Assembly: GCA_018350325.1 (NCBI GenBank)
Contig: JAEVLN010000002.1
Span: 2,630,295 to 2,694,294 of the forward strand
Origin: Globodera rostochiensis
Lineage: Eukaryota; Nematoda; Chromadorea; Rhabditida; Heteroderidae
DNA: 64,000 bases
Direction: 5' to 3'
Below the pieces are notes generated by a model. It saw nothing but the letters and a program-made list of their open reading frames with translations, made no database searches and was not told the DNA's origin. The translations under genes were made by a program, and so were the position numbers. Shown here piece by piece: positions 6,671-57,267 of this stretch (positions are counted from its first letter, which is position 1; every line of letters starts with the position of its first letter).

Positions 6671-8402
6671 TTAAGATGTGCTGCCGCTTTGCTCTCCATC
6701 CTCATTATCGTCATCATCGTAATAGCCGTCCATCCATCCTTCATCATCCGTCAAAGAATTCTCCTCATCCTCCTCCTCATTATCGTCATCATCATCATCG
6801 TAATAGTCGTTCATCGACCCTTCATCGTCCGTCTCCTCATCCGCTCTTCCGTAATCATCGTCCCCCCACTCTTCTTCATCCATGTTGCTCTTTGTCGGCT
6901 CGGCGGTGCTGTACAAGCTCGGGTCCACAATTTCAATGGTCAGCCAATGTTCACGTCCAACCTGGTCGATGACGACGTGATTCTGATAATTCCAGCCGAT
7001 TGGTCCAGTTTCGGGCATAAAAAGTGGATGTTCGCGGCGCAATACACCGAATTTCTGCAAAATTAAAAAAAGTAGAACTTATCTCCTCCATCGGCCAACC
7101 CGGGGCTCGGTTTATTTAGACATCATCCGAGCCGGGTCCAAACCCGAGTAGCGCGAGCAGGGCCGTAGCCAGTAAAAATTTTCGGGGGGGGGGCATGGCC
7201 CCCTCGGCCCCCCCCCCCTGGCTACGGGCCTGAGCGCGAGGAGTACTTGGTAGAAATATCCGGGGAGGGGTGGTCAGCAGCAAAAGAAGAGATCCCGCAG
7301 CCTTTTTTTTTTTTTGTTATTGGCATTGCTTCGGTGGCCTTTTTAAGCTTATTTTAATTGGAGGCGACTCGGCGGTGCCGATGGGCGCAATTTGTACAAA
7401 AAAGTGATCCAAAAAGTGAATAATTCCGATTAAATTTTAAAAATAAGACCGAAAAGGTTATTTTGGGGCATCCCCCTGTCGCTGTTTGTCCCCCTCCCCC
7501 CCCCCCCTCCCCCACCGTAAATTCGGCATCGCACAGTCCTCCGACGATCATTTGGACCCACAGCCACTGCAGACGGCTTGCGCCTCCGAGCGGCGTCAAC
7601 ACAAATCGCTGCATCAATTCAGCCCCATAGGCGACAACGTCCGCGAAAGGCACCGTCCAATCGGACGACGGCGCCGACATATGCCGAAGGGTCGGCAGAA
7701 CGAAGGAAAATGCCAAAGTGAGACGCTCCAGACGGGGACAGGCACCACATAAAATGCCAACCAAACGCTGCCAATGGTCGACAACGAGCCAATGGAGGAA
7801 GAACGGCTCCAGCACACGCAACTCTACACGAAAGTACAGCTTTAACTCCACTGACTCAGCAGGCACAACAGAAAAGTTCCTGAATTACAATAATTGAGTG
7901 AATTAGCAATCAAGTTTCTCACGAAAAAAGGGAAAGTTTATCCCGAAAAAAAGGGAATTGATTTCATTTCGAATTTTTTAAATTGTGCTCTTAAAAGGAT
8001 GGCTCCTCTCGACTTACACACACCTGATTCTTTTATTCGACGTGCCGAAACGGTCGCTCTCTTCGACCACAAATTCGATGATCTGCGGATGGAACACATT
8101 GCGTTCAGCAAGTGCGTAGATCAAAGCCGTACTGACGCGGCAAACTTCCTTAAAAGCATTAAAAATATTTTTGCTTTTTTGAATGTTCTTTTTATGACCA
8201 AAATCTATGCATTCGCTTACCATAACCAAACGAATTGCTGGCGTCGCACATTCATTGCCGCCTTCTTTTGGTGTGCAGAACAGCAGCCACTCGCGCAGCG
8301 AGCCATCACAGCGGACATGGCACCGCGCACCGGCAACGACGCACTGCCGCCGTTCAAATTGATCAGCAAGCGAAGACATGTACTCGTAGTAAAGTGGGAC
8401 GG
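6671..8402 (-). CDS. unknown protein with acidic repeat tail
   Basis: Four exons on the minus strand (8402-8221, 8148-8024, 7879-7516, 7054-6671) join in frame to about 350 residues. The 5' exon with the start was not found upstream of 8402. The central part is Leu-rich with regular spacing (CPRLERLTLAFSFVLPTLRH), reminiscent of the leucine-rich tail of F-box-type proteins, but no F-box is visible. The last exon ends in an acidic low-complexity tail in which a YYDDDD-type block occurs twice (MNDYYDDDDDDNEEEDEEN and MDGYYDDDDNEDGEQ). The intron between the last two exons holds a small inverted-repeat element. Function is unknown. Confidence 0.5.
7158..7232. mobile_element. 75-bp hAT-like MITE
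   Basis: Termini CAGGGCCGTAGCCAG and CTGGCTACGGGCCTG are inverted repeats (14 of 15 match). The 8-bp sequence AGCGCGAG flanks both sides exactly (7150-7157 and 7233-7240). The inside is mostly G-run and C-run. The CAGGG start and 8-bp duplication are hallmarks of the hAT superfamily. It sits in an intron of the unknown minus-strand gene. Confidence 0.8.
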
Positions 8403-9171
8403 CTTAAAGCACAAATCAATAAATATATCTCTAGAATAAAGAATGGAAATTCGATAAAATATGGTAAAATTCGAGTTACTTGTAACTACTCTTTCTCAAA
8501 ATTAAACAAAATGCCACCAGATTCAGCAAATCCGGAAATTAAAAAGACAAACTCGGATACCGAAGAAAACAATAAATGCAAAAACATGCACTCCTTTGGT
8601 CCAAAAATTGTTATTTTTATTAAAGCCCGAGTAAAGGCCGGTTTCGTGAAAAAAAAATTCTTATCAAATCACTAAAATCTTCAATTTTATCCCGCATCGA
8701 CTCGTAATTTTTGGACCAATTTTCTTAAAATATCGTTAAAATCTTCCAAAATTCTTCCCAGCAACGCCTATCGGCGCCGCCGGACCCCTCCTATTCTTTA
8801 AAAGTTTCAAAAAATAAAGTATTTTTAAAATTTTGGTTGCAAATTTCAACAAATTGAGTCAAAAATTCGAAAATCCTTAACAAAAATGCAATAAATTCGG
8901 AAAAAAGCACACTAAAAAGCGAATATTTTTTGGAAAAAACTACTGGATTATTAAATTTGAGATACATAGACACAAAAAATCGAAACGAAACGACTTTTGA
9001 TTTTTCAAGTTAGAGAGTAAAGAAAATAAAAAAAAATAAAAAAATTTTAAAATCACAAAAATTAAATTTTGGCGTTTCGTATCGACGACAATTATCGATC
9101 AGCGTAAAGCATTTATTGGCTTGGGAGTTTGCGCAAAACAATTCAACAAACGTTTAAATGGCATTTGAAAC
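8403..9171. repeat. intergenic with dispersed repeat copy
   Basis: No gene recognised. The segment around 8590-8890 contains CGCCTATCGGCGCCGCCGGA and, further on, GGTTGCAAATTTCAACAAAT with GAGTCAAAAATTC. The same two landmarks recur near 48800-48900, and the first recurs near 53475, so this is a dispersed non-coding repeat family. First exons of the unknown gene to the left may lie here but were not identified. Confidence 0.5.
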
Positions 9172-9188
9172 AAAATTTTTAGCTTTAA

Positions 9189-10583
9189 ATGGAAGCCGAC
9201 TCGTTTTTGTTGTATTACATAAAGCGGAGAATTGAGAGTGGCGATGCAGGCCTCCAATGGTACGAGGCGCCCCATTGTGGGGAGGAGGATGATGGCACCG
9301 TGCCGTGCAGTTGGCTGGCCGTCGAGGAGGCGGCCCTCAACTTTGAGAGTGATAACAGGTCGAGTGGGCTGAAGGCTGGACAATATTCCGAATTTAAAGC
9401 ATAAGAAATTTATGGATTTTTGAAAGAAAAAAAAACTAAAAAAAAAAATTAAATTTTTTGTGGGGGTTGGGGAACTCCATTTTTTTTTAAAATTTTGTTA
9501 ACTTTGTTTGGCCTCAGGTCTTAATGTCGTTTTTTATTTCAGAGATCATATAGAACAAGAGTTGAACAATTTAGCAAAGGGAGTTCGTGGAAGATCGGTC
9601 ATCAACTTCAGTGCCTTTAAAAAAGTAACAAAATTTTTTGTTTTATTTAAAATTAAATTCATTGCTAATTGTGAGATGAAAAATGTTGAAATAGCAAAAT
9701 TTTAAATCTTAATTTATTATCGAATCTTTCAATCTTCGTTGTCGAATTTTGGTTTAAATAATCGATTTTAGGTTGTGGACAAGTATTTTGAGCTGTTGCA
9801 AAAGCGCCTTCAGCAAAATGCCGAAAATTTGTGTGTGCCTCTATTGGCACTGATTGCGTTCACGGGAATGTTCTCGAGACGGTTAGCCGAAATGGGTGCT
9901 AACGAACGCATTCTTCGAGGTTTTATTTAAAAATTAAGCAATGTTCAAGAAGTGATTTTTTCGGGCTTCAGAGCAAAATCGAAGGGATTTTCGGCATGAA
10001 ATTTATCTGTTGTCCATCTACGGCCCGGTCATGTTTCGCTCCAAATTGGACACACTCGCGGCCAGCGACAATTCGTACTCATGGGTATGAAATTGCTAAT
10101 TGTACAAACATTGAATTTTTTTGTCGTCTTATTTCCCCCCCCCCTTCAATGTGAAAATGAAAAAAATGACAAATTACATTAAAATTGCCTCTTCTTTTTT
10201 TGAAATCGCTATTTTAGCTCGGTGCCAGAATATCCGCAATCTTTTGATCAAATTTTCAACTCTGTTAAGCTTGGATTCATTTTTAAAGATTCGAACACGG
10301 CTCATCCATCAGAACTAATTATTATATTATCAGATTCACTTTTTAAAAAACGTTCAGGATCACTTTTGCTCTGACTCTCTCCAATTGCTTGAACACATCT
10401 CTTTCTGCAAAAAACAGGCGGAAGGTCGGTGGAGTTGATGGCCAAGCATTTTTTTAATAAGTTTTTTAAGCCTCGGCTGCCCTTTTGTCGACTTCTTCCC
10501 GCGTCGGCGCTGTTCTTTGTGGACTTGCAGCAGCAGCGGCTGCCTATTTTCTGATCGTCAGGCGCTATGCCGAGGCAAACTGA
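9189..10583 (+). CDS. ced-9: CED-9-like Bcl-2 family apoptosis regulator
   Basis: Six exons (9189-9358, 9543-9624, 9772-9919, 9972-10084, 10358-10424, 10471-10583) join in frame to 230 residues. In C. elegans CED-9 sits on the outer mitochondrial membrane and restrains CED-4. Support comes from domain order: an N-terminal BH4-like helix (FLLYYIKRRIES, then WYEAPHCG, which parallels the CED-9 N-terminus), a BH1-like helix (LLALIAFTGMFSRRLAEMG), a BH2-like SYSWDHF motif, and a C-terminal Ala-rich membrane anchor (VGAVLCGLAAAAAAYFLIV) followed by basic residues. The start is the first ATG after a TTTTTAG acceptor at 9177-9182 with no upstream donor, so trans-splicing is likely. C. elegans CED-9 is about 280 residues. 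The BH3-like region is poorly defined here. Confidence 0.8.
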
Positions 10584-10857
10584 TAAGCTGATTATAGTTC
10601 AGAAATGCCAAAGGATCGCCAAATTTTGAAAAACAACCAAAAGCATCACTCAAAAAAAATGTATTCTATTTGTGCCAATTTGTCTTTGTTAGAAATTTTC
10701 GACGAATTAGCAAGAAATCTATTAAATTTACTAAAAATTGGTTCAAAAATAAGAACTTTTATTTTTGTAATTTACTTATCCCCACACTGAATGTGTTTTA
10801 TTTATTGAATCCATTGTTTTATTTTATTCGATTAATTTTGTACATTTTTATTTCTCA
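10584..10857. other. intergenic, AT-rich
   Basis: 3' flank of the ced-9-like gene. AATAAA-like signals are present. No gene seen. Confidence 0.4.
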
Positions 10858-11524
10858 TTAATAAAGCGACATAAAAGATGGCTTTTGATATTCGCAGCAA
10901 ACGGAAGAGGAGAAATTTGGGTTGGATGATTGATTACCTACTCTGTTCAGGGAAACCGCAAGGGGAGTTTTGATGGGGACAACGGACCTGCATTTAATTT
11001 TAGCGATGCTCGAAAACAATTTAAAACAAATAGGAATCCGTCCCAATCCCAGCCAAATTCTGTAAATATTCGACATGAAACTGGACGTATTTTTCGATTG
11101 AGTACGTACTCTTTCAGCCCGAGCATCACTCGTGAGCAAGGCGCTCATATAAAAAAATTACAACGGATAAACGCGTTTGTACACAATTTGAGTGTGAAGA
11201 AGCATATGATAGGTGGCACATCGCGGCGATTTGCCACAGTTTGGGTGCACAGTGGCCATGTGCAGGCGCGCCTCCATGTGAGTGGCGTTCAACAAAATCC
11301 ATTCCCGAATCATCTGAATAAACGGAAACTTTTCCCTCCAAATTAATTTACATTTTCAAAAAACTAATTAATTTACATTTTCAAAAAACTACGCAAAACT
11401 GCGGCAAACTCAGTTTTAGTTTCTGATAGAGTTCGGTCGGTGAGAACGACTCCCGCGAAAAAAGTACGCGTTGGCCCAGCGGGATTTTTAACGGAACGGA
11501 AAAAAGCGGGAATCCCGGTCCCAT
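10858..11524 (-). CDS. uncertain minus-strand gene or fragment
   Basis: An ATG at 11524 opens a 44-residue frame (MGPGFPLFSVPLKIPLGQRV onward) ending at a GTAGTT donor near 11392. A second stretch (11345-11160) reads as protein in one frame (MIREWILLNATHMEARLHMA), and a third (11110-10930) reads NIYRIWLGLGRIPICFKLF. I could not reconcile the phases of the three, so the exon joins are unknown. The intron holds two tandem copies of a 25-bp AT-rich unit at 11343-11392. It could be a small mitochondrial or structural protein, or a decayed gene. No family recognised. Confidence 0.3.
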
Positions 11525-11666
11525 TATTTGAATTCTCGTCTGGATTTTTTTTTCTACCAAGGCCTCTGTTTCTGGTAACCGCTAGGAATAATTGCTTTTC
11601 AACCTATCCTTGAACAATCATCGAATCCTTTTTTATGAGAAGTTTTTTAGGAAAATAAAATTTATT

Positions 11667-14576: not shown

Positions 14577-14584
14577 CTGCAAAC

Positions 14585-19361: not shown

Positions 19362-20028
19362 CGGCTCTACTTCAGTTTATGCGTCTAATCGAAGTTTATG
19401 GCGTCCAATGAAAGTTTATGCTCCAAATAAAATTTTATGCATCCAATCACAAATAAGAATGAATTCTCTTAAAATTTATTTTATAAAGATATTTAAAAAA
19501 TCTAAGTTTACCTACCTAAGTTATAAAAATAGACAAAAAAAGTTTTGTTTGCCAAGTTCACTCAAGAAAAAATCAAAGACCAAATAATAAAAATGAGACG
19601 AGAAAAGTTTTGTTTATGGGGGTCAATCACCGTTTATACTTTGTCGACCCTACTAACCCCACAAGTTCATACACAAGGGATTGATGAGGCTACTTGGCGG
19701 GCTCTTAAGCAGAGTTTAAAACATTTACATGGCACTAACCATGACATGCTTTCTACTTACCTTTACCAATATATGTATTAGAGCTGTTCGAGATTCTTGG
19801 TCTCGGTTCTCGAGTCTTTTTTGGGTCTCGTTCTCGGTCTCGAGTCTCGGGGTCATTTCTCGGTCTCGATTCTCGGTAAATTTCAAGTCTCGAACAGCTC
19901 TAATATGTATCGTCGTTTTCATATTCTTGAGGATATTCGTTTACATTTTCCTGTTTAATTCGTTTGGCTCAGTTCATGACCTTTTGTTACTCAAATTCTG
20001 ATTGGACGCATAAACTGAAGTAGAGCCG
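19362..20028 (+). mobile_element. Merlin/IS1016-like DNA transposon remnant
   Basis: CGGCTCTACTTCAGTTTATG at 19362-19381 (continuing GCGTC) is perfectly inverted at 20005-20028; the match extends to about 29 bp with one mismatch. Inside, a + frame from about 19600 reads IDEATWRALKQSLKHLHGTN and then DMLSTYLYQYMY. It resumes after a nested insertion with RRFHILEDIRLHF. This matches the C-terminal end of IS1016/IS1595-type (ISXO2-like) DDE transposases, which have W-x2-LK-x-R-LH-HGT-x9-YL-x-E-x2-YRRRF. The rest of the transposase is missing, so the copy is dead. No target-site duplication was found. Confidence 0.65.
19779..19902. mobile_element. 124-bp hAT-like MITE nested in the Merlin remnant
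   Basis: Terminal repeats TAGAGCTGTTCGAGA and TCTCGAACAGCTCTA are perfect inverses. The flanking 8 bp ATATGTAT is duplicated exactly (19771-19778 and 19903-19910). The inside is a decayed series of TCTCGG/TTCTCG motifs. Removing the element and one duplicate restores an open transposase-like frame across the site, which proves insertion. Confidence 0.92.
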
Positions 20029-21279: not shown

Positions 21280-21284
21280 TTGAC

Positions 21285-24052: not shown

Positions 24053-24178
24053 TAGTGCTGCACGAGACCCAAAATTTACCGAGACTCGAGACCGAGAAAT
24101 GACCCCGAGATCGAGACCAAAAAAAACCGAGAAATTTCTCGAGTCGAGACTCGAGACCGAGACTCTCGTGCAGCACTA
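24053..24178. mobile_element. 126-bp hAT-like MITE
   Basis: Terminal repeats TAGTGCTGCACGAGA and TCTCGTGCAGCACTA are perfect inverses. The 8-bp ATATATGC is duplicated on both sides (24045-24052 and 24179-24186). The interior, read on the minus strand, shares the core GGTCATTTCTCGGTCTCGA and TCTCGGTAAATTT with the element at 19779-19902, although the terminal repeats of the two differ. Confidence 0.92.
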
Positions 24179-25275: not shown

Positions 25276-27336
25276 ATGCTGACAAATTGCCTAATAATAA
25301 TTTTTATTGTTCTCTCCACAGCAACAACTGTTGCAACAAAGGTTTGTTTAATGTTTAATGAACAATTTTTTCTCTGTGTTCGTCAGTTCCTGTTTGAAAA
25401 TAAACTTTATAACCCTAAAAATAAAATAATTAATTGACTTTTTTTAATCAACAAAATGAAATTAAAAAAATAAAAATTATTATTTTTCCAATAATAAAAA
25501 AATTAATCAAAATTTATCAAAAAAATTTTTTATTGCTACATTGAATAAAACTTTTTTAACCCTTCCGGCGTTCGACCCTCACACATATCCGGACTCATTA
25601 CGCGAATGGACCGAGTGCGGGGGCATTGACCGCGCGGCGTTGGTCTGTGACCCGGACACACTGCTGGACCCGGGCCCCGACGGAACGCCGGGTGGGTGCC
25701 TTCTTACTGTAATCTTACGGTAGAGGAGAGTGTGGTCTGTGTTGTACGGTCGAAATTGAAATTTTTGTGCATTTGCTGCAGGCATTCTTTTGTTGGATGC
25801 CGCGTCTCGGCACATTCAGGCGAACACCGAATGCATTTGTGACATTGCCGCTGAATCTGAAGGTACACACACGAGATTCTCGATCGTAATCTCGGTAAAT
25901 GTGCGAGATTTTTCGAGACTCTCGATCGAAATCTCGGTAAATGTGCGAGATTTTTCGAGACTCTCGATCGAAATCTCGGTAAATGTGCGAGATTTTTCGA
26001 GACTCTCGATCGAAATCTCGGTAAATGTGCGAGATTTTTTCAAGATTCTCGATCGTAATCTCGGTAAATGTACGAGATTTTTTCGAGACTCTCGATCGTA
26101 ATCTCGGTAAATGTGCGAGATTTTTCGAGACTCTCGATCGAAATCTCGGTAAATGTGCGAGATTTTTTCAAGATTCTCGATCGTAATCTCGGTAAATGTG
26201 CGAGATTTTTTCGAGATTCTCAATCGTAATCTCGGTAAATGTGCAAGATTTTTCGAGATTCTCGATCGTAATCTCGATCGGTCTTCAAGTCCGGGCTCTA
26301 CACGTCACAACACGCTGTTTTGTTGGTCAATAAAATTCGGTTGAATGATTTCGTGAATTTTAAGGAAATGCCTTCGGGCTGTGTCAGCAAAATCCCCCGA
26401 TGGGATTTGTTGTGACGGTGGCGGTGCTTGGCAAAATGGAGGTGACCGATGACCAACGGAGGCGTTACAGAAAGTGTGTTAAAAATCATTATTTAATTTA
26501 TTCGAAATAGTCAAATTTGAATTTAATTTGAATTCAATAATTTAGCGGCGCTCATTTGCCCGCAATTTTTGCCAACGAATTACGAAATCGCCTCCAGCGG
26601 GGACAATGCGCGGACGATGTGCTAATTGTGTTGGCCGTCAACGACAGTTCGGTGGGTGGCACAAAATGTTTTTAAAATAATTTTGTTGTTTAAATTTAAA
26701 CAATTCAAATTTATTCAAATTGTTATTTTCGATTCGCACAAGTACGGGCCGATGGGCAGCAACAAAACTGGACGCCGAATTCCTTCTGAACGTGTCGCAG
26801 ACAGCGCGTGAACTGACCTTTTATATTTTAATTAAAATTTATTTAAGCTTTTTGGGTTAAATTAAAAGTCACAATGGCCAACCAATTAACTGAATAATTT
26901 GCGTATAGTCTAAAAAATTTAAAACTTTAAATTGCATAACTTTTAGAAAAAATGTTTTCCCGAGGCGAAAACACCGGCGGCTTACTGTACATGCTCGGCG
27001 AGTACGGTAGCCGACTTGGCGCCCCGCCGTTTGCGGTGGAAGAACAAGCCCTGAGGGAAAAGGACGGCGGCTGGTGGGACACCAACTTTTGGCCAATGTT
27101 CCCTCAGGTGGAATTTTAAATAAAATAAATTTTATAATAATAAAAAGATTATTATTATTTAGGCATTGCGCCAATCCGAACTCCGATGGTTTTGGCTGCT
27201 CTTTGTGCTGTTTTTGCTGTTGCTTTTGCTTCTGTTGGGCGTGTTCATTGCGACTCGGCTTCTCCGAAATAAAAAACGAAATTCGGCGGGCTATCGGCGG
27301 GGACAGCCGACGAACAAAAAGAGTGGAAAAAAATGA
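25276..27336 (+). CDS. MOLO-1-like TPM-domain membrane protein
   Basis: The ATG at 25276 follows a TTTAG acceptor by 6 bases and opens a signal peptide (MLTNCLIIIFIVLSTATTVA). Exons: 25276-25341, about 25563-25691, 25781-25862, 26365-26473, 26546-26655, about 26767-26806, about 26949-27107, 27164-27336. The family signature YPDSLREWTECGG then LVCDPDTLL is followed by the TPM fold (LCQQNPPMGFVVTVAVLGKM; FANELRNRLQRG; DDVLIVLAVNDSS). A single C-terminal membrane helix (WLLFVLFLLLLLLLGVFIAT) and a basic tail complete it. C. elegans MOLO-1, with this layout, is a positive auxiliary subunit of levamisole-sensitive acetylcholine receptors; that role here is inference. The acceptor of exon 2 lacks an AG, and exon 6 borders are approximate. 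Intron 3 contains a 9-copy repeat. Confidence 0.8.
25871..26308. repeat. 9-copy ~42-bp TCTCGG-motif array, remnant of an inverted-repeat element
   Basis: CTCGGTAAATGT recurs nine times at about 42-43 bp spacing, separated by CGAGA...CTCGATCG palindromic blocks. The array lies wholly inside an intron of the MOLO-1-like gene. Its right end, GTCCGGGCTCTA, equals the terminal repeat of the element at 34433-34614. The left terminus has been lost. TCTCGGTAAAT also occurs inside the two elements at 19779 and 24053, linking them. Confidence 0.85.
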
Positions 27337-27507: not shown

Positions 27508-29379
27508 TTAATTGCCCTCGCGGCGTTCACAACGCCCGCAACAGTCGTATTTGAACACGTGCGGCAGCGCGCGCGCCTGCGGCAAGTCGCAAATGCGCGC
27601 GTCCGGACGACACTCCGAGCACGGCTCGCAGCACGCGATTTTCCACAGTGCACGCCTTTCGCGCGTGATGGTGGTGCCGCAACCGGGCAACGGCGTGCAG
27701 TCAAAAAAAAAATTCAAAAAAAAATTTTTAAAATTTAAAATTTTGTTTACCATTCTCCTCCTCGTCCAATGTTGTTTCATCTCCGTCTTCCTCCTCCCGG
27801 TACTGCTCGGACTCTTTGGCCAAGTCGAATTTGTGTCCCATACACTCCGAACACCGATAAATCGCACAAATTTTGATCCAATCGCCCCGCGAGGCGTCCA
27901 CCGCCGTTCCGATCACTTTCTGAAGTGTTGGAAATGAACTTACTTATAATAATGTTAATGCTTTACAAATTTAAAAAAATATATATTTTAAATATTTTTT
28001 AGTTTTCTTTAAAAAGGTTAAGAATTTTAATTACGTGTATTTTTAACAAATAAATTTTGGGACCTGAAATTTTCTTTTCCGCGTCTTAATTGAAAGGGCG
28101 TCCGAAGGACGCGCGAAAGCGTTTGGGCCGTATTGCATCAGACTACGGTAATCGTACCGTACGCCGTAAGTGATGGCCTTCTCCGTTGTTACCGTACGAA
28201 ATTGGGCATGCAAATCTTTTTGTATTTAAAATTAATATGTTTTCATTAATTAATTAATTAATTATTTGCTTACAAAATGGTATGTTTCTGAATTGCACTC
28301 GGATGAATTTGTCCCGATCCGAACGCATGTGCTCGTGCCACAGGCCGAGCTTATGGAACAGTTCGTGGAGTACGGTAGCGTCGGTGACGCACGTCTCCCC
28401 CACCGTACCCTCCAGCATCAAAATGTTGCGGCCCGGCGAGCGGCCAACACTCGTGAAGCAGCTGTAATTGAATAATTTGTACAAAAATATAAACAATTTA
28501 CCGTTCCACCGTTTTTTGCTTACGGTATGTACTCTACTCCATAAACGAATGAATAATGAATTTAAATTTGTATCTTAATTAGAGAAAGGACTTGAGGACC
28601 GATCGAGAATCTCGATCGGTCCTTTCTCTAATCTTAATTAGCATTTTCAGATATTTTGGGTTCTTCAAAATTCTTCTAAAAATTTTGAGGAGGCTCAAAT
28701 GTCCGAAGGAATGCAAAATGCCAATATTTAAATTTAAAACGAAAACAAACCCTTCGCCATATTCGTTTTGAATGTCGACAAAGTCTTCGTCCCCCCGGTT
28801 CCGTTTTGATTGGAATTTTACGCACGTATTCCGTGCAATTTTTTGCATAGCCATAAAAATGACTTCCAACTCCGATTGGGCTAAATTAATTTAATTTAAT
28901 TTATTAATTAAAATTACTAAATATTTGAATAATTATGCATTTATAATTATTTTTTATTTCCTTAATAACCCACAGAAATTTCCTGAAATTTGGTAGGGTA
29001 TCACAAATTTTCCGTCTTTTGCGTCTCTTTGCGTTGTCCACCGATTCGTCGCATTGTTTCTTAAAGCATTTCGCATTTTTGGGTCTCTAAAAAATTAAAT
29101 TTAATTTAAAAATTTAAAAATTTTTACTGCAAAATTTGCCTTTGATTCTCTTCCCAAAGCTCAATTACATCGCCGTGGCCATGTCGATTCCGCGGGCCGT
29201 GCTGTTCCGCCAAATCGATTGGCATCGGCTTTAAAAACAAAAAACTTTTATTATTTAATGCCTAATTTGAATTAATAAATATCAAAATAAATCAAACAGA
29301 CATCGCCTTTTAAATGTTGAAATATTGCAACGATAATAAAAAACAACGTCGTACAATTGCCGTCGAAATTTGAAACCAT
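27508..29379 (-). CDS. astacin zinc metalloprotease with Cys-rich C-terminus
   Basis: Eight minus-strand exons (29379-29302, 29228-29128, 29086-28974, 28880-28751, 28461-28274, 28215-28064, 27919-27751, 27701-27508) join in frame to 374 residues. A signal peptide (TLFFIIVAIFQHL) and short propeptide precede NRWTTQRD and VIPYQISGNF, the mature start. The zinc site HELFHKLGLWHEH fits HExxHxxGxxHE. The Met-turn reads SLMQY rather than SxMHY; the Tyr ligand is kept. C-terminal to the catalytic domain (QKVIGTAVDASRGDW) is a Glu-rich linker and a module with about 13 Cys (CCEPCSECRPDARICDLP; CCGRCERREGN). Secreted protease, substrate unknown. The last intron's acceptor has no AG. Intron 4 carries a 51-bp MITE. 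Confidence 0.85.
28580..28630. mobile_element. 51-bp hAT-like minimal MITE
   Basis: The element is bounded by TAGAGAAAGGAC and GTCCTTTCTCTA with an exact 8-bp duplication ATCTTAAT (28572-28579 and 28631-28638). The centre is the palindrome GACCGATCGAGAATCTCGATCGGTC broken by a short spacer, so nearly the whole element can form a hairpin. Its core recurs at 61098-61139. Confidence 0.9.
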
Positions 29380-33700: not shown

Positions 33701-35011
33701 ATGGCCAACGGAACTGTCCAATTACCGCCGCATTATTACCCATTCTCGTAAGTCCCTTGGAATATGAAAATAAGGACTAATTTATTTTAAGATTGTTGCC
33801 TCCTAATTATGCCCTCAAGCATTTTGGCACAATGCCAGGCTTTTCCTTATTAGCGCCACAAGCGCTTCAAATCGAATTGTGTAGCCAATGGTTGGACAAT
33901 TTTTGTGAACAAAGTTTGAATACGGACGAACGAGCAGCAGAAGGTGTGTTGGAGTTTAATTGTCATGACAATTTTTTTAGAAGATATACGGTACGATGGG
34001 AAAATGAAATTAATCATTTTATAAAAGAGAAAATTAGAAAACAAACTGTTTGATGTTTGTGGGAAAGTTTTCTAATCAAATTATAAGTAATTTAAAAAAT
34101 TGGACACTTTCACAGATGGCGCCTACGCTTATGATGATCGCGTAGAAAAGGCGTCAAACGCTGTCGACCTCAACTTGCCACAATTGGTAATGCCAGAGGC
34201 TATGCCATTCCGTGAAAGGCATTTTGCCGACGGCAATGTTTTCTCGCGCGACAGTGAAAGGCGAGGGGCAACCGCCGGCAGGCGCGCGGGTCATCCGTAC
34301 GAACGGCGAGCGCCTGCGGCGCAGAAGAAACTGCGCACGTCCTTCTCAAAGTCACAAGTGGGCCGCCCCCCAAGGGGTTTTTTTCTACGAACGACGCATT
34401 ACAAAAAAGAGGCAAAATCAGAGAAAGAAAACTAGAGCCCGGCGAAATCGAAATCCCGACCGAGATTTTCCGAGAGTCCAGGTCTCGAATCTCGGAAATT
34501 TGTCGAAAACTCCGAGACCTGGACTCTCGAAATTTCGAGATAAATCTCTATCGCGATCTCGGTCTCCGCCCATCCCAAATCTCGATCTCGGATTTTTCAA
34601 AAGTCCGGGCTCTAAAGAAAACAGAATTTCGGAAATAAAAATTAAAAAACAAAATAAATTGAGAAAAAAAAATGTTATTTTTTGGCACGAAAGATTGCGG
34701 TGTTGGAGCGCCGATTTGCGGAGCAAAAGTATTTGGCGTCCAGCGAGCGTGCACCGCTCGCCCTGCAGTTGTGCATGCAGGACGCGCAGGTGAAGACCTG
34801 GTTCCAAAACAGACGCACAAAATGGTGAAAAATTTGTTCAAAAACATTTAAATAATTTAATTGATATATGTTTTAAAAAAGGGGGAACATCATTTTTTAA
34901 GTGTGAAAAGTCAGAAAACAGTTTTTAAGGCGTCGTCAAGAGGCGGAGGAACGCGACTTTGAGCACAAATTGAAGAGGGCGGGCGCCATACGACAAAATG
35001 AAGAGCACTGA
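33701..35011 (+). CDS. TLX/Hox11-class homeobox transcription factor
   Basis: Five exons (33701-33747, 33792-33943, 34116-34357, 34694-34824, 34930-35011) join in frame to 217 residues. The homeodomain begins [11 protein letters not shown] and continues [20 protein letters not shown] and [18 protein letters not shown]. The Thr at homeodomain position 47 (VKTWF) and the [11 protein letters not shown] segment are diagnostic of the TLX class. Asn51 and Arg53 are intact, so DNA binding is expected. It ends shortly after the homeodomain. The start is the first ATG after an unpaired TATTTTAG acceptor. The intron that splits the homeodomain contains a 182-bp MITE. Confidence 0.85.
34433..34614. mobile_element. 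182-bp hAT-like MITE in homeobox intron
   Basis: Terminal repeats TAGAGCCCGG and CCGGGCTCTA, exact 8-bp duplication AAGAAAAC (34425-34432 and 34615-34622). The interior is made of TCTCGGA/TCGAGA variants in both orientations, including an internal inverted repeat (GAGTCCAGGTCTCG with CGAGACCTGGACTC). Confidence 0.92.
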
Positions 35012-46600: not shown

Positions 46601-47386
46601 TTGAAATTAATTACTCTTTTTGTATGATGCGAATTTCCCCGTCCAAAATTGGCCTTTACCCCAACATTTGGCGTATATTCGCCGTGAATGGCTCCACCGC
46701 TCCCAACAGAGGTCGAAGACGGCACGGATGACGCATGCATTTGTGTGATGGACATTGCCGTAAATAACGATGGCATTGAACCGTCCATTCCTCCAATCTC
46801 ACCGCGATGTTGCTGAGTTCGCCGGTGTTTGGCACGGGCATCCTGAAGCAAAAGTTTAAAAACATTTTGATTTTAATTTTCGACCTGAAACCAAACTTGG
46901 AGCACTCTCTTTGTCAGCCCGGTCTTTTGGGCAAGCAGCTTCAAATCCTTGGCATCCGGGTTGTGGTTTTTTTTGAAGTAAATTTTCATCGTCCGCAGCT
47001 AAAAACTCAAATTTTAAGCCAATCCAAATTACAAAATTGGCCCTTACCCCAACATTTGGCGTATATTCGCCGTGAATGGCTCCACCGCTCCCAACAGAGG
47101 TCGAAGACGGCACGGATGACGCATGCATTTGTGCGACGGACATTGCCGTAAATAACGATGGCATTGAACCGTCCATTCCTCCAATCTCACCGCGATGTTG
47201 CTGAGTTCGCCGGTGTTTGGCACGGGCATCCTGAAGCAAAAGTTTAAAAACATTTTGATTTTAATTTTCGACCTGAAACCAAACTTGGAGCACTCTCTTT
47301 GTCAGCCCGGTCTTTTGGGCAAGCAGCTTCAAATCCTTGGCATCCGGGTTGTGGTTTTTTTGGAAGTAAATTTTCATCGTCCGCAG
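45736..47386 (-). pseudogene. LIM-type homeodomain fragment joined to EB1-like 3' exons
   Basis: Minus-strand exons 47386-47273 and 46998-46885 each encode homeodomain residues about 16-50 (LRTMKIYFKKNHNPDAKDLK; GLTKRVLQVWFQ), close to LHX2/9-apterous homeodomains. Each is followed by an exon (about 47230-47048 and 46842-46660) opening DARAKHRRTQQHRGEIGGMD. In both, the invariant homeodomain Asn51 is Asp (WFQ-DARAK). A further exon (46591-46522, HSLPPPQRVADLPPVSPMF) leads in phase into exons 46402-46218, 46075-45965 and 45841-45736, the EB1-like tail exons. No LIM domains or homeodomain N-terminal arm are present, and the last EB1-like exon is deleted. Probably a chimeric, inactive fragment. 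Confidence 0.65.
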
Positions 47387-47427
47387 CTAAAAACTCAAAA
47401 TTTAAGCCAATCCAAGTTACAAATCAA
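46652..47427. repeat. 388-bp tandem duplication of homeodomain exons
   Basis: 46652-47039 and 47040-47427 are near-identical direct repeats, each holding both homeodomain exons and the intron between them. Differences are single bases (for example TTTGAAG versus TTGGAAG in the first exon, changing one Lys to Gln). Confidence 0.93.
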
Positions 47428-50635: not shown

Positions 50636-52341
50636 CAAACTGCCAGATGCATTTCCCTGTCCAGCCTCGCTGCTGTTCAGTTTGTTGCTGTTCTGCTGCT
50701 GCATCATCGCCATCGCGTGCATTTGCTCAGCGTCCGGACTTTCCAGGCGCGGCAAGTCACCGCGCGGCTGCGGACTGAGGCGCGTATGCGCGCTGCTTCC
50801 GCCGTCCGTGGAACTCGCGCACTTAAAAAAATAACATTTTCCTAAAAACTTAGCTTCACGAAGACGGCCACATTCATAACAAGCAAAATTGTATTCTTTT
50901 AAGGTATTCTTAAAATGTGACCCCCCCCCCCCTCAACAATAATACCTCACTGCGATCCCATAAAATGGCTTGCACTTGGTCAACACGCAAAATTCCTCCA
51001 CCGCCCAAGCCGCCGTCCGCCATTGCGCACGAGCCGCAAAGAATTTCGATAGTGCGAAGTTTGTCGAAATAAAAGTTGCGCTCGCGCTCCAACATTTGCG
51101 CACGCTCACGTTCTTGCACTAGCTGTGCGTTTACCTCGGAATTCTAAAAGTTTCCATCAATATAACTTGTCACGTTCATTGTTTGTTCGGTGTACCTGAG
51201 CCTCCAGAACCTGGAGTTGTTGTTTCAACCCGTTCACTTCCGGTGTTGTCAACGTTTTGGTGGCAAAAACTCCCGTTGATGCACGTCCAGCGCTGCCGCT
51301 TGCCGTTCCGCCGCCGTTCTGTTGATGCTGGTGCTGCGGTTGGTGATGACGCGTAGTTGTGGAGGACGGACGGGGCGTCGCCGCAACACTGCGCGGACTG
51401 GCACGACGCAAACTGACCAACGACGACCCAACGACCGGTTGTGCTGCAGGCGGTTTAAGTGCTTAAAAAATCTTTTTAATGGGGTTTTCTCCCCGTTTTT
51501 CAAGTTTTGCTGCCCTCTTCCCTCCCAAAAAACCTTTGGAAGCTTTGGCACGGCTCTGCGCGGTCTGTGCCATCAGAGTGCCGGCGGGACGTGCAACAGA
51601 CTTCGATGGCACGGGCGGTACTGCCGCTGCGCGACGACTTGCACCAGCCGGTGGCTGAAGAGGAGGAGCCCTCTGCTTGCTACCGCCAGGCAACGCGGCC
51701 GGAAATTCCTAATTTGCAATTTTTTCAGACAAAAAGAATGCGTTAAATTATGAAAGTTGCAAATATATCCAAACAAACCTCATAATTGCGTGCCGCCACC
51801 GGGTCGTATTCGTGCCCGTCATAGTTGGCATCGAAGAACTTTTTGAACCTGAAAGGAGTGAGTGGAAATGTAAAACTTTAGCGATTCGGGGACGGGAGAC
51901 GAACCATTGCAGAAATTCAAAATTGTCCTGAAATTTGGCCCTCATCAGATTCTGCACGGGGACGGGCTGAAATTGGGGGGAATTTCAAAAGATTATTTAA
52001 ATTATTTAAAATTAAATTTAACTTTGTCAATTCCGATGGTTTTCCACGACTGCTGCAAAACACGCCAATTGTTCATCCAATCGACGTCCGAACGGCTGTT
52101 CCATTTGACCTTTTTCAGCGGCACTTTGCTCGGAAAGAGAAAATCCGTCAGATGGCAATAGGCCGCCCCCGTGGCCATCTCCTCAATTTTGGTCAGTTTC
52201 GACTAAAACAATTCGATTAAAAGCATTTCTTTTTCTGTTTTGGAAGTCGACCTGAAGACAGTCGTTCACCCAGGCAAGCAGTTCAAAGCGTGAAGTATTC
52301 TCGCTGGTCACGGAAGTTGAATAGACATTCACTACCGGCAT
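49448..52341 (-). CDS. long EB1-family microtubule plus-end protein with C-terminal extension
   Basis: Twelve exons (52341-52252, 52202-52023, 51966-51905, 51848-51779, 51708-51534, 51461-51196, 51143-50946, 50821-50629, 50506-50325, 50190-50080, 49955-49850, 49752-49448) join in frame to 645 residues. EB proteins bind growing microtubule ends and recruit partners. The CH domain (residues 1-134: [47 protein letters not shown]), a Pro/Ser/Thr/Gln linker and the EB-homology coiled coil ([19 protein letters not shown], about residues 310-345) are all present. Ordinary EB1 ends soon after (268-330 residues in total). Here about 230 more residues follow in phase, ending in a Cys-rich segment instead of EEY. 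The extension's exons also exist at 21635-23025 and 45736-46402, so the gene may have gained them by rearrangement. Confidence 0.75.
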
Positions 52342-52387
52342 TTTCGGCAAGTCTCTCTGCTTAAAAAAATTATATTGCTGTGGTCCA

Positions 52388-52870
52388 GTATGAATTTTAG
52401 AGAAGGTTAGCTTGAAGACAATTTTCTAATGCAGAAAAACTACTCAAAATCAATGACTTTTTGAAGGAACGCTCATTTAACCTCCCACTCATTCATCAAT
52501 TTGTATGCGAATTGGGAATAAAAAAGAATGAAACAATCAACATACGCAGACGTTTGGGTGGGTAAGAAAGGAATGTGAATAATAAATGAAACGGAAAATG
52601 TGGGGGCCGATTTGGCTGACAATTAGTGATGTGTGATGACTGATTACATCCGTTTGCTGTCAGGGCAAAGGCAAAAAAAGTAATTCCGACCTCAACCGCA
52701 GCAGCAGAAGGAGAGGTGAAAGTGAAAAGAAAATTGATACTTTTCATCCATTCCATTCTTTTTTGTTAGAAAGGCGTGGGGGGGGGGGGGTTGGATAAAG
52801 AAATGAGACGGAAAGAGAGGAGAGTGATCAACCCTCTCTCCCTCTCTCTTTACTCAAAATTGTGTGGTCA
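52388..52870. repeat. 480-bp direct repeat, copy 2
   Basis: Partner of 48030-48530. It starts at ATGAATTTTAGAGAAGGTTA, about 50 bp upstream of the long EB1-like gene start, so it is part of that gene's upstream region. Confidence 0.92.
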
Positions 52871-53175
52871 CAGAAAAATCGGCAAAAAAAACAAAGGGAA
52901 AAACGAGAGATTTTTTGTCTGACCGCGACAATTTCGTCGTTCAGAGAAATCTCGCGAAGCGGATTAATTATTCATGGTGTCAAGGCGTTCAAATCATACA
53001 ACATGGGTGACCCCTCCCTCAATTTGGGGGAAAGGGGGGGGCGGCATGGACAGCAAAAAAAGATTGAAAAAAAGCGAATCAATTAATTTGTAAAAATCAT
53101 AACGCCAAACATTTAAACAAATTCAAATTAATAGACAAACTCTAATGACGCGGCAGACAGTGTGATGTTAGACAC
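52871..53175. other. intergenic
   Basis: No gene seen. G-run at 53034-53041. Confidence 0.4.
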
Positions 53176-53350
53176 TAGGGTTGGACAAAACCGAATATTA
53201 TCCGGGTCCCCCGGATACCGGATAGCTCAAAAACACCCGGATACCGGTCCCGGGTCCAGCATAATTTAGCTATCATCGTTCAAGACCGGATAATTTTTAT
53301 TCAAAATTGTCACATACCGGTTCCAGATTATCCGGTTTTGTCCAACCCTA
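53176..53350. mobile_element. 175-bp hAT-like MITE
   Basis: Perfect 18-bp terminal inverted repeats TAGGGTTGGACAAAACCG and CGGTTTTGTCCAACCCTA, with exact 8-bp duplication TTAGACAC (53168-53175 and 53351-53358). The interior is a decayed CCGGATA/TATCCGG motif, in both orientations. Confidence 0.95.
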
Positions 53351-53358
53351 TTAGACAC

Positions 53359-54459
53359 TTTATCGCTAAATTTTTTGAACTCCAACCAAAACTTGATAAC
53401 ATGGGGGAGGAGGGGGGGGGGGGGTGACATGAGGGAGGGGGAGGGAGCAAATTTTCAAAATTTTTGTTTTCACGGCGGCGCCTATCTGCACCGCCAAACC
53501 CACCATAGGAATGGGCAACTTCTACATATCATTTTTTTGATCTCAGACTTTAGAATGTACCTATGCCATTTCTTGAGTAGGTTTGTCGAGGAGTTTTCGG
53601 TAAGTCTGAACCCGGGGATTGGAACCGATCTGAAATGCCCCCAATATTTTTTTCAGATTTTTGCTTTATGATTTGGGTGATTTGGAGTCTCCATACCATA
53701 CGACTTTTATTACCGGAAGGAAGCATTTAGACGGGGTGGGGAATTAATTGTGTTACGCTTCAACGGCTGACGTCACATCTTTTCCAGCGATCAAAGAGTT
53801 TATGCGCATTGTTGATAAATGAAAATAGCTTTAAAGTCAAATCAAATTTTTTAAAATTAAATATTTCAATTTAAAATGTGTACATGGATATGAAGGTGTA
53901 CAAATAATGGATAATGATTTTGTTGGAGAAAATCGATGGTTGAAGTCGGAGGCCAAGGCCACTCACCCAACCTTCGTCCACTCAATTATCCACGCCGATT
54001 TGTCGAATTGTTAGCCGACGAGTTTTATATAAAAAAAAAATTAATTTAAATATTATGAATCAGGGCTTATCGGAGAATTCTCTCTGAAAGAGATGTTTGA
54101 ATGTGATAGCGCCGGGGTAAATTTAAAATTCTGGTTCCTCAGAATTTCAAAAACTCAGTTTTCGGAGCTGGATCTTCTTAACCGAACCTAACTCAAAAAA
54201 TAAAATAAAATCCAGGATTATGGAGAAGTCCAATAATGCCAAAACTCTATTAGCTGCTCCATCGTTGGTGTGTAAGGCTGATTTGTGAGTCCGGAAGTGC
54301 GTGATGCGTGCGGACAGGCCAATCGATCAGGCGAACGTCGCGCGCACGTGCCACAGCCCAATTCAACCAATTCAAAATGCATATAATTGAAAAGTATTAC
54401 CACCGATCGATTTGTTGGCATCAAAATCTGCGATTAGCCAATTTTGTTTTTATGGCGAG
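53359..54459. other. intergenic with dispersed repeat fragment
   Basis: G-runs at 53411-53424 and a copy of the CGGCGGCGCCTATC dispersed repeat near 53474. No gene recognised. The last 100 bases are the presumed 5' region of the next gene. Confidence 0.4.
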
Positions 54460-57267
54460 ATGGGCCGTTACCGTCGTCAACGTTTTTCCATTGTTACTGT
54501 AACGCTTCTGTGCATGATTATGATCATAGGCAGCAACTTGCAGTTGTCCAGCGCTATGTTTGGTTGGACACGGGCAAAGAAAAAAGGTACCGTAACAATT
54601 GAGACCGCCTCCGGGTTTACTGGTTTAAATCGGAAGTTTATACAAAATTATTTCATTTTTAGAATTATTGAATTTATCCGTTTTCTTCCCCGACCCTTCG
54701 GGGGTGGCGTGTCGGGGATCGGGTTTAGGCCCAAAAATGTCGGGGGTCGGGGGTTAGGCCTAAAAATGTCGGGGGGGGGGGGGGGAGTTAAGCCCAAAAA
54801 TGTCGGGGGTCGGGAGTTAGGCCCAAAAATGTCGGGGGTTAGGCCTAAAAATGTCGGGATTAAATTAAATATATATTTTCAAAAGTTTCAAATTCTGCTG
54901 ACCAATTGGACCGCGAAGCATTGGACGCGGAAGAAACTGGCGAAGAATTTGTCCGCTCTTCAGCCAACCGGGGCCCGGACGGATGTGGCCACAAGCTGAA
55001 AGTGGCACTTGCCGTCGTAAAAGCCTATGGCGCTTCGTTCAAGCATTGGTGGTTAAAACCGTTGAAAATGTCATTTTATCAATTTTTTTAGGCATTGGCC
55101 TTGGCGAAAAAAGAAGAAAACCAATAACGGTAATGGACAAAATCGAAAGATGGACGAGCATTTGAGAACGATTGACTATTGTGCCGCGATTGCTGAACGT
55201 GAAGAATATCAGGCTCAATTTTAAATATTTTATAGAAATAATAATTTTTTTTTATTTTACTCAATTTGATCAGAGAGGCCGTTTTGGCCAACACCGCCGG
55301 CGGAGAAAACGCCGCGGGGGCCGACGACGGCAGCCGCGCGAGTTGGACGACAAAAGCGCACTGAAAGCGTTGACGCGAAAATTGAGGCGTAAAAACAAAA
55401 TGCACATTAGCGCGGATCATTGGGAAAATATTGGAGTAAAATTTACACTTTTACGTAAAATAAATTACGTTTATAATAAAGCTCTTTCTAACTTTCTAAA
55501 ATGCCTAAAATGGAATTGGCCGACAAAAGATTCAAATCCATTCTTTCAAAGTAGAGTATCCTGGGTTTTTGACCCTGATTTGATTAATTTTCCCACTCAT
55601 AAAAACCCGGTTTTTTTAATTTTCTCAATCCCGATCCCGGGTTTTCCTAAAATCCCGGTCCCGGCTTACTCTATTTCAAAGTGAAAAGTGTCCGTATTTA
55701 GTAACAAAATTGAGCAACTTCAATGCTTTTTGCGTTAAGGTAATCCGTTGGGGGCGACGCGCCATCCGCGACATTCGCCGTCCGGGTACATTGATGAAAT
55801 CAATTAAATTAAACATTTAAACATTTGTAATTTTAAAGCGTCAAGAAAGGGTTGGGCTCAAGCAAAACTGAAAAAGCGAAAAACCAAAAAATTTCTGCGT
55901 AAAAATCGACGCCGAATGAAGCGAGAGGGGGAAGACGATGAAGAGGAGGGCGACACGGACGACGAGGGCGGGTCGGACGAAGACGGCGGCTCATCGGACG
56001 ACGACCACGACGGCACCGGCACCAAATTCAAATACTCCAAGACGGCCCACGGCTACAGTAACGACAAAAATGCCGGCAGCAATGCGAAAGACAAAATTTA
56101 CGGTAGGATTATGAAATTTCGGGGATCAGAAGCCGATCCCGGTCCTGGCTTTGCCGACTCCGATCGGGGAACTCAAACCCCAAACAGAGGTTTCCTGAGT
56201 GAACTCACTCAATCTGTTCCATTCCGTGGGCAACAAATGTCGTCAACCCTTCCGGCGGGGAACTGAACTCGATTGAATTCATCGCGATTTGATTTAAACT
56301 GAAAATTAAATTCAAAAATATGGGAATATTATTTTATTCCTTATTATTAAAATTAAATTAAAAAAAATGAGTTTTTTGGCCCGTCTCATTTATTAGAGCA
56401 CAGTTTTTCCCCCTTCAAATTCACCTATTGAAACTGCGCCTTACTAACATGGCAGGGATCCCTAGCATCAGAATGCAAGAAGTTCAAGCAGTTCAGCATG
56501 CTCACCTTTTCAGAAACGGTTTCTTTTGAGGCGAAAGACCCCCGAAAAGGTCGCTACAATCAGCGGACAGTGACCGAATTCAAATTTCATGGGCCAAAGC
56601 ACAGCGAATGGCGCCATCGACCGCCGAAACCGCCAAAAGCCGGTAAAAAGGCGCTGAATTAACGAATTTTCATTTGAGCAATTTAATTTTGAGCCTTTGT
56701 AAGTCTTTGTAACATTTAAAAAATATAATTTAATTTTTTATTAAAATTATTTTAAACGCTGAAGAAGGAAAAGCGTGGACTGGCAAATTCAAAAATCGAA
56801 GGCGAGAAGGCGGTGGTCATCAAAGTGTCCAATGGGACAGAAAGAGTGGGAAGACTCGTCGAAATCGATGGACCAAACAAAATTGGGGTAGGAAACAAAA
56901 TCCCCTGGACTATTTTCAAAAATTTAAATGATTTTTGTTGAAAATGCCAAAAACTTAAATGTTTTCATTTGACCTAAATTCTTTTGTTCTGCCTTCAGAT
57001 GACCACCACGACGGGGGCGGCTATTATTATACGGTAGCACATCCGTCACTTTATCCCTATGATCACTATTATGGTGGTGGTGATGGGTACGGTAGTCCGT
57101 CGTACTGGTACTCCTACTCAGAAAATTATTACGGTGGCGACTTCGGCTGGTACGGTGGGGGCTATGCGGCGGAGGAGGGCGGATTTATGCCGTCGGGCAG
57201 CTTGGGGAAGGCGATGAAAATTCTTGGCATTATTCTGTTCGTCCTCCTTTTGATCATAATAATTTGA
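54460..57267 (+). CDS. low-complexity secreted/membrane protein (basic, acidic and Gly/Tyr blocks)
   Basis: ATG 54460 opens a basic then hydrophobic leader (RFSIVTVTLLCMIMIIGSNL), a likely signal peptide. Supported exons: 54460-54586, 54886-55016, about 55275-55437 (FGQHRRRRKRRGGRRRQ), about 55741-55786, 55840-56101 (Arg/Lys block, then GEDDEEEGDTDDEGGSDEDG), about 56456-56643, 56766-56889 (WTGKFKNRRREGGGHQ) and 57000-57267 (YYGGGDGYGSPSYWYSY, then a C-terminal membrane helix KILGIILFVLLLIIII). The charge blocks alternate strongly. Joins around 55090-55275 and 56100-56456 are uncertain, and an alternative end at 56266 exists. No family recognised. It could also be two adjacent genes. Confidence 0.45.
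54690..54862. repeat. intronic ~28-bp GTCGGGGG/TTAGGCC repeat
   Basis: About five decayed copies of GTTAGGCCCAAAAATGTCGG with variable G-runs lie inside an intron of the low-complexity gene. Confidence 0.8.
55552..55673. mobile_element. 122-bp hAT-like MITE
   Basis: Ends TAGAGTA and TACTCTA with exact 8-bp duplication TTTCAAAG (55544-55551 and 55674-55681). The interior is a decayed ATCCCGGG/ACCCGG motif. It lies in an intron of the low-complexity gene. Confidence 0.85.

What the first reader, a model, noticed from the sequence alone, without database searches (positions are those of the whole stretch)
7158..55673. Family of small hAT-like elements whose interiors are each built from one amplified short motif
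Seven elements (7158-7232, 19779-19902, 24053-24178, 28580-28630, 34433-34614, 53176-53350, 55552-55673) have exact, different 8-bp target duplications and termini TAGAG/TAGTG/TAGGG/CAGGG, so each was mobile as a unit. None codes for anything. Interiors are not random: each is a decayed series of one short motif (TCTCGG, CCGGATA, TCCCGGG, or G/C runs). Normal MITEs share an interior because they derive from one parent. Here a common architecture persists while motif and terminal repeats vary, suggesting that the interiors are regenerated by motif slippage or copying between arms. 8-bp duplications point to a hAT transposase acting in trans.
Basis: partly seen in the sequence, partly recalled or inferred. 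Interest (0 to 1): 0.85.

Follow-up and report, generated by a model that had tools for sequence, protein, structure and literature searches.

The report
Tiny jumping elements made of motifs
These are small cut-and-paste DNA transposons of the hAT type, probably in a cyst nematode; most of them look like arrays of one short motif because little is left of them but the two motif-filled ends that a hAT transposase is expected to grip, and each transposase lineage studied in this genome has its own motif.

Summary
All seven intervals have exact 8-bp duplications. A blind scan up to 400 bp finds 7 intervals (six of the named elements and one chance hit) against a mean of 0.17 in 30 simulated windows.

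They are several families, and their interiors are not made anew per copy: each of the five families searched by DNA has 40 scored matches, with conserved interiors (mostly one conserved end in family 1).

The key lies elsewhere in the same 92.6-Mb genome. The 14 complete elements read that carry the hAT dimerisation domain bear dense short-motif arrays in both ends (6.6 sites per 100 bp; 0.16 in the middle, 0.13 in flanks). Twelve motifs mark twelve transposase lineages. The window's elements are mostly what remains when little but the two arrays is left; e4, e5 and a 42-bp-unit array share ends and motif with one coding lineage.

In one lineage motif base 6 switched A to T at nearly all sites of both ends while spacers stayed aligned. 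Nine paper searches listed no description of such a switch. That transposase binds the arrays is inferred.

The parts
7158..7232 (.). e1: 75-bp element, tips CAGGGCCGTAGCCAG/CAGGCCCGTAGCCAG, duplication AGCGCGAG; interior of G/C runs, no motif array
   Evidence: 40 scored matches in the genome, most to one end only; two near-identical copies read have duplication GTAGGAAT
19779..19902 (.). e2: 124-bp hAT MITE, tips TAGAGCTGTTCGAGA, TCTCGG motif, duplication ATATGTAT
   Evidence: 45 matches from 40 scored of 707 candidates
24053..24178 (.). e3: 126-bp hAT MITE of the same clan as e2 in opposite orientation, tips TAGTGCTGCACGAGA, duplication ATATATGC
   Evidence: 1036-bp relative L114 with the same tips and duplication GTAGGTAT
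25872..26300 (-). Array of a 42-bp TCTCG unit (9.5 copies) ending in the TAGAGCCCGG tip; left tip not found
   Evidence: its end is 25 of 29 identical to the e4 end and shares 16 bp with the coding element L038
28580..28630 (.). e4: 51-bp near-palindromic element, 12-bp tips TAGAGAAAGGAC, duplication ATCTTAAT
   Evidence: copy number not obtained
34433..34614 (.). e5: 182-bp hAT MITE, tips TAGAGCCCGG, TCTCG motif, duplication AAGAAAAC
   Evidence: 40 scored copies, 81-92% apart from itself; 14 bp of the right tip shared with the coding element L038
53176..53350 (.). e6: 175-bp hAT MITE, 18-bp tips TAGGGTTGGACAAAACCG, CCGGATA motif, duplication TTAGACAC
   Evidence: 40 scored copies; 30 read: mean 2.6% from consensus, 21 with exact and distinct duplications; 300 ends by pattern with up to 2 mismatches, control 0
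55552..55673 (.). e7: 122-bp hAT MITE, 7-bp tip TAGAGTA, TCCCGG motif, duplication TTTCAAAG; deletion form of a 231-bp element
   Evidence: 40 scored copies; L111 1450-1680 is the longer form with 18-bp tips

Best explanation
The seven intervals are non-autonomous hAT transposons (MITEs) of several families. Each hAT lineage read in this genome fills both its ends with a dense array of one short motif, and the motif differs between transposase lineages. Most of the small elements (clearly five of seven) keep the tips and the two arrays and little else, so the whole interior looks like one amplified motif. The arrays most likely act as multiple binding sites for the BED-type DNA-binding part of the cognate transposase, which cuts and moves the elements in trans and leaves 8-bp duplications. 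Shown: duplications, families, coding elements with the same architecture, motif specific to lineage, shared tips and motif of e5 (and, more weakly, e4) with a coding lineage, tandem growth of units, concerted change of both ends. Inferred: that transposase binds the motifs, that it moved these very copies, and which lineage served e1, e2/e3, e6 and e7.
For: Seven exact duplications; scan 7 hits against 0.17. Multi-copy families with conserved interiors. Empty counterpart of a family-2 insertion with one copy of the duplicated 8 bp (L017 against L060). 100 dimerisation-domain and 49 zf-BED matches; 21 of 49 BED matches have a dimerisation domain downstream on the same strand within 4 kb, none only in a wrong order. 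In 14 of the 30 best domain loci, tips and exact duplications enclose the domain; motif sites: left end 227 in 3,400 bp, right end 222 in 3,400, middle 18 in 11,531, flanks 9 in 6,814. Same motif label: domain identity at least 85% (42 pairs); different label: 25-67% (364 pairs). Duplication pattern T2 in 16 and A7 in 17 of 21 family-6 copies, the pattern I recall for Ac/hobo-type hATs. Literature on subterminal binding sites.
Against: No binding was tested. No coding element with the tips of e1, e2/e3, e6 or e7 was found among the 30 loci read of 100. e1 has no motif array. Of 30 domain loci, L060 has no array and L039 and L056 score below the 95th percentile of controls; controls themselves reach the scores of many hAT loci because other repeats lie in them. 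Three of the twelve motifs lack CG. Motif labels were my own, from the same loci, and near-copies share a motif by descent. The coding elements read are short (687-1,764 bp) and look internally deleted.
Confidence: 0.85

Rival explanations
1. One reading: a shared architecture persists while the interior of each copy is made anew by slippage or copying between arms, so copies do not share interiors.
For: Units are duplicated in tandem (window 25872-26276, L107, L108). Facing e2/e3-type ends are identical in 20 of 23 pairs. In L112 and L114 the two arms of one element (87%, 88%) are closer than the same arm across the two elements (83%, 81%).
Against: 40 scored matches per family, in four of five families over most of the interior; 2.6% mean divergence over the whole of family 6, where the two arms keep different letters at fixed positions; L052 shows hardly any arm-to-arm match (28 bases).
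Confidence: 0.07
2. For the concerted change of motif letters only: gene conversion or template switching between sites, or a mutational bias, rather than selection by a transposase of changed specificity.
For: Arms within an element can be more alike than the same arm across elements; partly switched right arms are absent within the first three sites (0 of 62), as a sudden process would give.
Against: Spacers stay aligned and hardly share in the change (29 of 235 against 23 of 34 for base 6 and 6 of 170 for the core), which long conversion tracts would not leave; the change is confined to one base of the motif.
Confidence: 0.4
3. Foldback-type elements, in which long terminal repeats are built of tandem units and expand to satellites.
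For: Tandem units inside elements and expanded arrays, as in Tetris of Drosophila virilis (PMC4079207, abstract).
Against: Inverted tips are 7-18 bp in the window elements and the arrays of the two arms are not long inverted copies of each other; coding relatives are hATs.
Confidence: 0.04
4. Chance: low-complexity stretches flanked by accidental 8-bp matches.
For: Interiors are of low complexity; the scan did include one chance hit.
Against: 7 hits against 0.17, and six with long tips against none; dozens of copies with distinct duplications; an empty site.
Confidence: 0.01

Closest known systems
Ac/Ds of maize (hAT) with AAACGG subterminal hexamers (PMC3260210, abstract and passages)
   Same: Non-autonomous elements of very different size share little with the coding element beyond tips and short subterminal repeats; 8-bp duplications.
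   Different: One lineage and one motif, whereas here about a dozen lineages have different motifs; here most of the window elements are nearly all array.
Hermes and Herves (hAT) subterminal binding sites (PMC10368747 passages; PMC3143072 abstract)
   Same: BED-type transposase binds short repeated motifs inside the ends; the Herves authors note that such regions differ in sequence between hATs.
   Different: Binding was shown there and only inferred here; the sites here are far denser (about 7 per 100 bp).
CGG-binding proteins derived from hATs (PMC8097297, text parts 1 and 2 of 3)
   Same: Isolated hAT-type DNA-binding domains prefer many different short motifs, mostly with CGG; for four hAT proteins they match the subterminal regions of the same element. 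Seven of the twelve motifs here contain CGG or CCG.
   Different: No binding data here; three of the twelve motifs lack CG.
CMITE of corals (PMC2872659, abstract)
   Same: Interior conserved while tips vary between families; tandem arrays.
   Different: Linked to piggyBac, not hAT, by its authors.
Tetris, a foldback element of Drosophila virilis (PMC4079207, abstract)
   Same: Internal tandem repeats of an element expand to longer arrays.
   Different: Long inverted repeats with 220-bp units; not a hAT with short-motif ends.

Membership tests
hAT superfamily (non-autonomous members) | 8-bp target-site duplication | tested here: met
   7 of 7 exact; family 6: 21 of 30 exact, all distinct; family 5: of 8 read, 3 exact, 4 with one mismatch, 1 none
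   Six of seven at both ends; not met for the right end of e1, CAGGC
hAT superfamily (non-autonomous members) | hAT transposase in the genome with the same tips and motif | tested here: inconclusive
   Met for e5 (14 bp of tip plus TCTCG motif shared with L038), weaker for e4; not found for e1, e2/e3, e6, e7 among 30 of 100 domain loci read
MITE | Short, non-coding, tips plus duplication, multi-copy with conserved sequence | tested here: met
   family 1 mostly one end; e4 copy number not obtained
MITE | Deletion derivative of a longer element | tested here: inconclusive
   Shown for e7 from a 231-bp non-coding form; longer non-coding relatives of e2/e3 are L112, L114, L052; no coding parent shown
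Ac-type subterminal transposase binding sites | Repeated short motif concentrated in both ends of coding elements | tested here: met
   14 of 14 complete elements; 6.6 per 100 bp in ends against 0.16 in the middle
Ac-type subterminal transposase binding sites | Motif bound by the cognate transposase | not testable with these tools
   No binding data; inferred from Hermes, Herves and CGGBP papers
Foldback elements | Long terminal inverted repeats built of tandem units | tested here: not met
   Contiguous inverted tips of 7-18 bp in six window elements

The most novel reading that the evidence does not exclude
hAT transposons switch one letter of their recognition motif at nearly all of the some 30 sites of an element in concert, in step with a change of transposase specificity, while spacing and orientation of the sites are kept. 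In the TAGTGTTMGGCA lineage one subfamily carries CGGTAA and a sister subfamily CGGTAT at nearly every site of both arms: L040 against L037, base 6 differs at 23 of 34 aligned sites, the core at 6 of 170, spacers at 29 of 235. Of 62 genomic right arms with printed letters, 50 have T and 12 have A at all of the first three sites, none mixed. Such a genome would hold a dozen natural codes, and one code change caught with both states alive.
Probability: 0.35. Interest if true: 0.75.

Novelty: new member of a known kind. Interest (0 to 1): 0.48.

Why it matters
As MITEs the elements are ordinary. What is useful is the setting: one genome holds about a dozen hAT lineages whose ends spell out a dozen different motifs, each in tens of sites per element. 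That is a natural experiment on how a transposase and its many binding sites change together, and on how small non-coding elements stay matched to one transposase. The concerted A-to-T switch, if it reflects a change of binding specificity, would be a case in which all binding sites of one protein can be seen before and after a change of code. It also explains a class of microsatellite-like DNA that repeat annotation could file as simple sequence.

Tried and rejected

L113 (714 bp with e6 tips) as the parent of e6: not accepted. Its extra ~540 bp is flanked by AGCT on both sides and starts and ends with an inverted repeat (read), and part of it also lies beside e6 in the window, so a nested insertion is likelier. 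Its own 8-bp duplication is not clean (read).

L112 (2,110 bp, duplication GAAGATTG) as a coding parent of e2: not accepted. Open frames of 60 aa or more reach 107 aa at most (no domain search was run on them), and it carries a nested 916-bp element with tips CAGGCATGGACACGG and duplication ATAAAATG.

A first pass of motif scoring on the hAT loci used contig orientation; minus-strand loci were then turned and the pass repeated. A first divergence figure for family 6 mixed orientations and is replaced. I first took the seventh hit of the scan to be e1; the recount shows a chance hit.

Ten window open frames against Pfam: 0 of 10 with a match. Species: inferred only from two partial matches, 98% identical over 37% of the query, annotated Globodera rostochiensis and G. 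pallida.

Paper searches: nine answered. No listed title or abstract start described these elements or a concerted motif switch; many subscription papers are not held. PMC11118728 (passages) names hAT among the widespread superfamilies of plant-parasitic nematodes.
Full report
What is in the window. The window lies in a 92.6-Mb genome in 80 contigs. A hAT fragment from it is 98% identical, over 37% of the query, to proteins annotated as Globodera rostochiensis and G. pallida, so a potato cyst nematode is likely; this is an inference. All seven intervals have exact 8-bp duplications. A blind scan gave 7 hits up to 400 bp, six of the named elements and one chance hit, against a mean of 0.17 (maximum 2) in 30 Markov simulations; six have at least 7 matching terminal bases against none in the simulations. 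The seventh named element, at 7158, fails the scan because its right tip reads CAGGC. With up to 2 mismatches in the duplication and 8 matching terminal bases, or with looser tips and 9, no further element up to 3 kb appeared; these settings also drop e1 and e7.

They are several multi-copy families. Family 2: 45 matches from 40 scored of 707 candidates; relatives keep the interior and differ by insertions or deletions. Of the 30 loci of that search, 10 (the window copy included) show an exact duplication with matching tips by my scan, all different. Family 6: 40 scored copies; the 30 read differ from their consensus by 2.6% on average, and 21 of 30 have exact duplications at the matched ends, all distinct, with T at position 2 in 16 and A at position 7 in 17. 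Family 5: 40 scored copies, itself included, the others at 81-92%; of 8 read, 3 have exact duplications, 4 have one mismatch and 1 (L096) none. Family 7: 40 scored copies, most lacking the first 7-14 bases of e7. L111 shows why: it is a 231-bp form with 18-bp tips, and e7 is that form with about 107 bp deleted just inside the 7-bp TAGAGTA. Family 1: 40 scored matches, most to one end only. The copy number of e4 was not obtained. One family-2 copy, L017, has an empty counterpart in L060, where the flanks run on through a single AAGCYTAA.

Where the motif arrays come from. The genome gives 100 matches to the hAT dimerisation domain PF05699 and 49 to zf-BED; 21 of the 49 have a dimerisation domain downstream on the same strand within 4 kb, and none only in a wrong order. 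I read the 30 best of the 100 domain loci. In 14 of the 30, tips with at least 7 matching bases and an exact 8-bp duplication enclose the domain. All 14 carry a dense short-motif array in both ends. The motif was chosen from the 3' side, so the left end is an independent test: 227 sites in 3,400 bp at the left end, 222 in 3,400 at the right, 18 in 11,531 in the middle and 9 in 6,814 in the flanks; motifs of the other lineages average 0-1.5 per end. Over all 30 loci, 27 exceed the 95th percentile of 180 control stretches taken from flanks of family-6 loci; L039, L056 and L060 do not, and L060 has no array at all. The controls reach a score of 49, within the range of the hAT loci, because other repeats lie in them.

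The motif belongs to the transposase lineage. I labelled 12 motifs in 29 loci: ACGGGAA, TACCGAA (CGGTA), TCTCGA, TTCGGAT, TTTCGA, TCCAGG, CCGCAA, TTCCGA, CCAAAA, ACCAGAA, GCCCGG and CCCCGGGGA. Dimerisation domains with the same label are at least 85% identical (42 pairs), with different labels 25-67% (364 pairs). The first figure is partly trivial, since near-copies share a motif by descent; the point is that lineages as far apart as the second figure all differ. Two lineages share the 10-bp tip TAGAGCCCGG but have different motifs (L031 CGGGA, L038 CTCGA), so the motif marks the lineage better than the tip. e5 shares TAGAGCCCGGACTT and the TCTCG motif with L038. The window array at 25872-26300 shares 16 bp of tip with L038, and the e4 end is identical to the array end at 25 of 29 bases. 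For e1, e2/e3, e6 and e7 no coding element was found among the loci read. Longer non-coding relatives of e2/e3 (L112, 2,110 bp; L114, 1,036 bp; L052, 804 bp) have arrays at both ends and share interior pieces at 68-84%.

How it most likely works. Hermes BED domains bind short subterminal repeats, and several hATs need sequence well inside their tips (PMC10368747, passages). Herves transposase binds a subterminal motif, and its authors note that such regions differ between hATs (PMC3143072, abstract). Ds1 elements share with Ac only the tips and a few AAACGG hexamers (PMC3260210, passages). Isolated hAT-type DNA-binding domains prefer many different motifs, mostly with CGG, and for four hAT proteins these match the subterminal regions of the same element (PMC8097297, parts 1 and 2 of 3). 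The arrays here fit that role. Most of the small elements consist of little more than two such ends, which is why their interiors look like one amplified motif. Binding and mobilisation are inferred, not shown.

Units are gained in tandem: L107 is a 535-bp family-5 copy with duplication CCGACGAT whose interior holds a long run of repeated 42-bp matches spaced 29 and 52 bp; the window array is another case; L108 is a tandem array, 69-bp period, of a family-7 end with flank. Ends change in concert: among the first 100 listed of 1,423 e2/e3-type ends there are 23 facing pairs within 2.5 kb, and 20 have identical 15-mers, against 4.2 on average and at most 12 in 10,000 shuffles. In L112 and L114 the two arms of one element are 87% and 88% identical, the same arm across the two elements 83% and 81%, opposite arms 76% and 78%; L052 does not show this (28 aligned bases only). 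In family 6 the arms keep different letters at fixed positions.

A motif switch. In the TAGTGTTMGGCA lineage L034, L036, L040 and L041 carry mostly CGGTAA (15-16 sites in the left arm, 18-19 in the right) with 5-7 CGGTAT per arm; L055 is likewise mostly CGGTAA (10 to 7 left, 13 to 1 right). L037 carries CGGTAT: 16 against 4 CGGTAA in the left arm, 16 against 0 in the right. The dimerisation-domain DNA of L037 is 90-95% identical to that of the others. Aligned L040 to L037, base 6 of the motif differs at 23 of 34 sites, the five core bases at 6 of 170, spacers at 29 of 235 (Fisher p 2e-11 against spacers). The other three CGGTAA references compared give 20-22 of 31-34. Between CGGTAA copies base 6 differs at 0-3 sites per arm. 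L037 lacks a stretch of the right arm, so not every site could be aligned. The sites thus changed one by one in place; the array was not regrown. In the genome the right-arm pattern has 101 matches with up to 1 mismatch and none for the reversed control. Letters were printed for 62 of the rows without mismatch: 41 have T at all four sites, 9 have T at the first three and A at the fourth, 12 have A at all four, and none is mixed within the first three. These are subfamilies related by descent, so this is evidence for one switch, not for 62 events. I favour selection by a transposase of changed specificity; conversion between sites and a mutational bias are not excluded.

Verdict. The elements are new members of a known kind, non-autonomous hATs with subterminal repeats. 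The concerted switch is the part worth following.

Noticed in passing
window 671-1286: Tandem array of a 38-bp unit, 16.6 copies, 94% matches, which makes long open frames on the minus strand.
   Followed up: no
window 46644-47423: Two copies of a 388-bp unit in tandem, 98% matches: a recent local duplication.
   Followed up: no
L108 (G000:C8:942570-943270): A family-7 end together with flanking DNA is repeated in tandem with a 69-bp period, so a transposon end plus outside DNA was amplified.
   Followed up: partly
L055 446-1301 and 1310-2042: Two different hAT-type elements (TAGGGTAGGTCCCGGGGGGG and TAGTGTTAGGCA tips) lie side by side, separated and flanked by the same 8 bp GTATGTAC: the second seems to have inserted at the duplication of the first.
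   Followed up: no
L113 (G000:C7:1828640-1829380): An e6-type element holds a ~540-bp insert with an inverted repeat at its ends, flanked by AGCT on both sides; a piece of the same repeat lies beside e6 in the window at 53094-53174.
   Followed up: partly
L112 842-1757: Nested 916-bp element with tips CAGGCATGGACACGG, duplication ATAAAATG and a GGTTAACCGCGG-like motif in both ends: possibly a further lineage and motif.
   Followed up: partly
L110 about 489-557: Short element with tips TAGGGTTGGTCCCCGACC and a CCCGAC-like interior; the 8-bp flanks differ at 2 positions (read).
   Followed up: no
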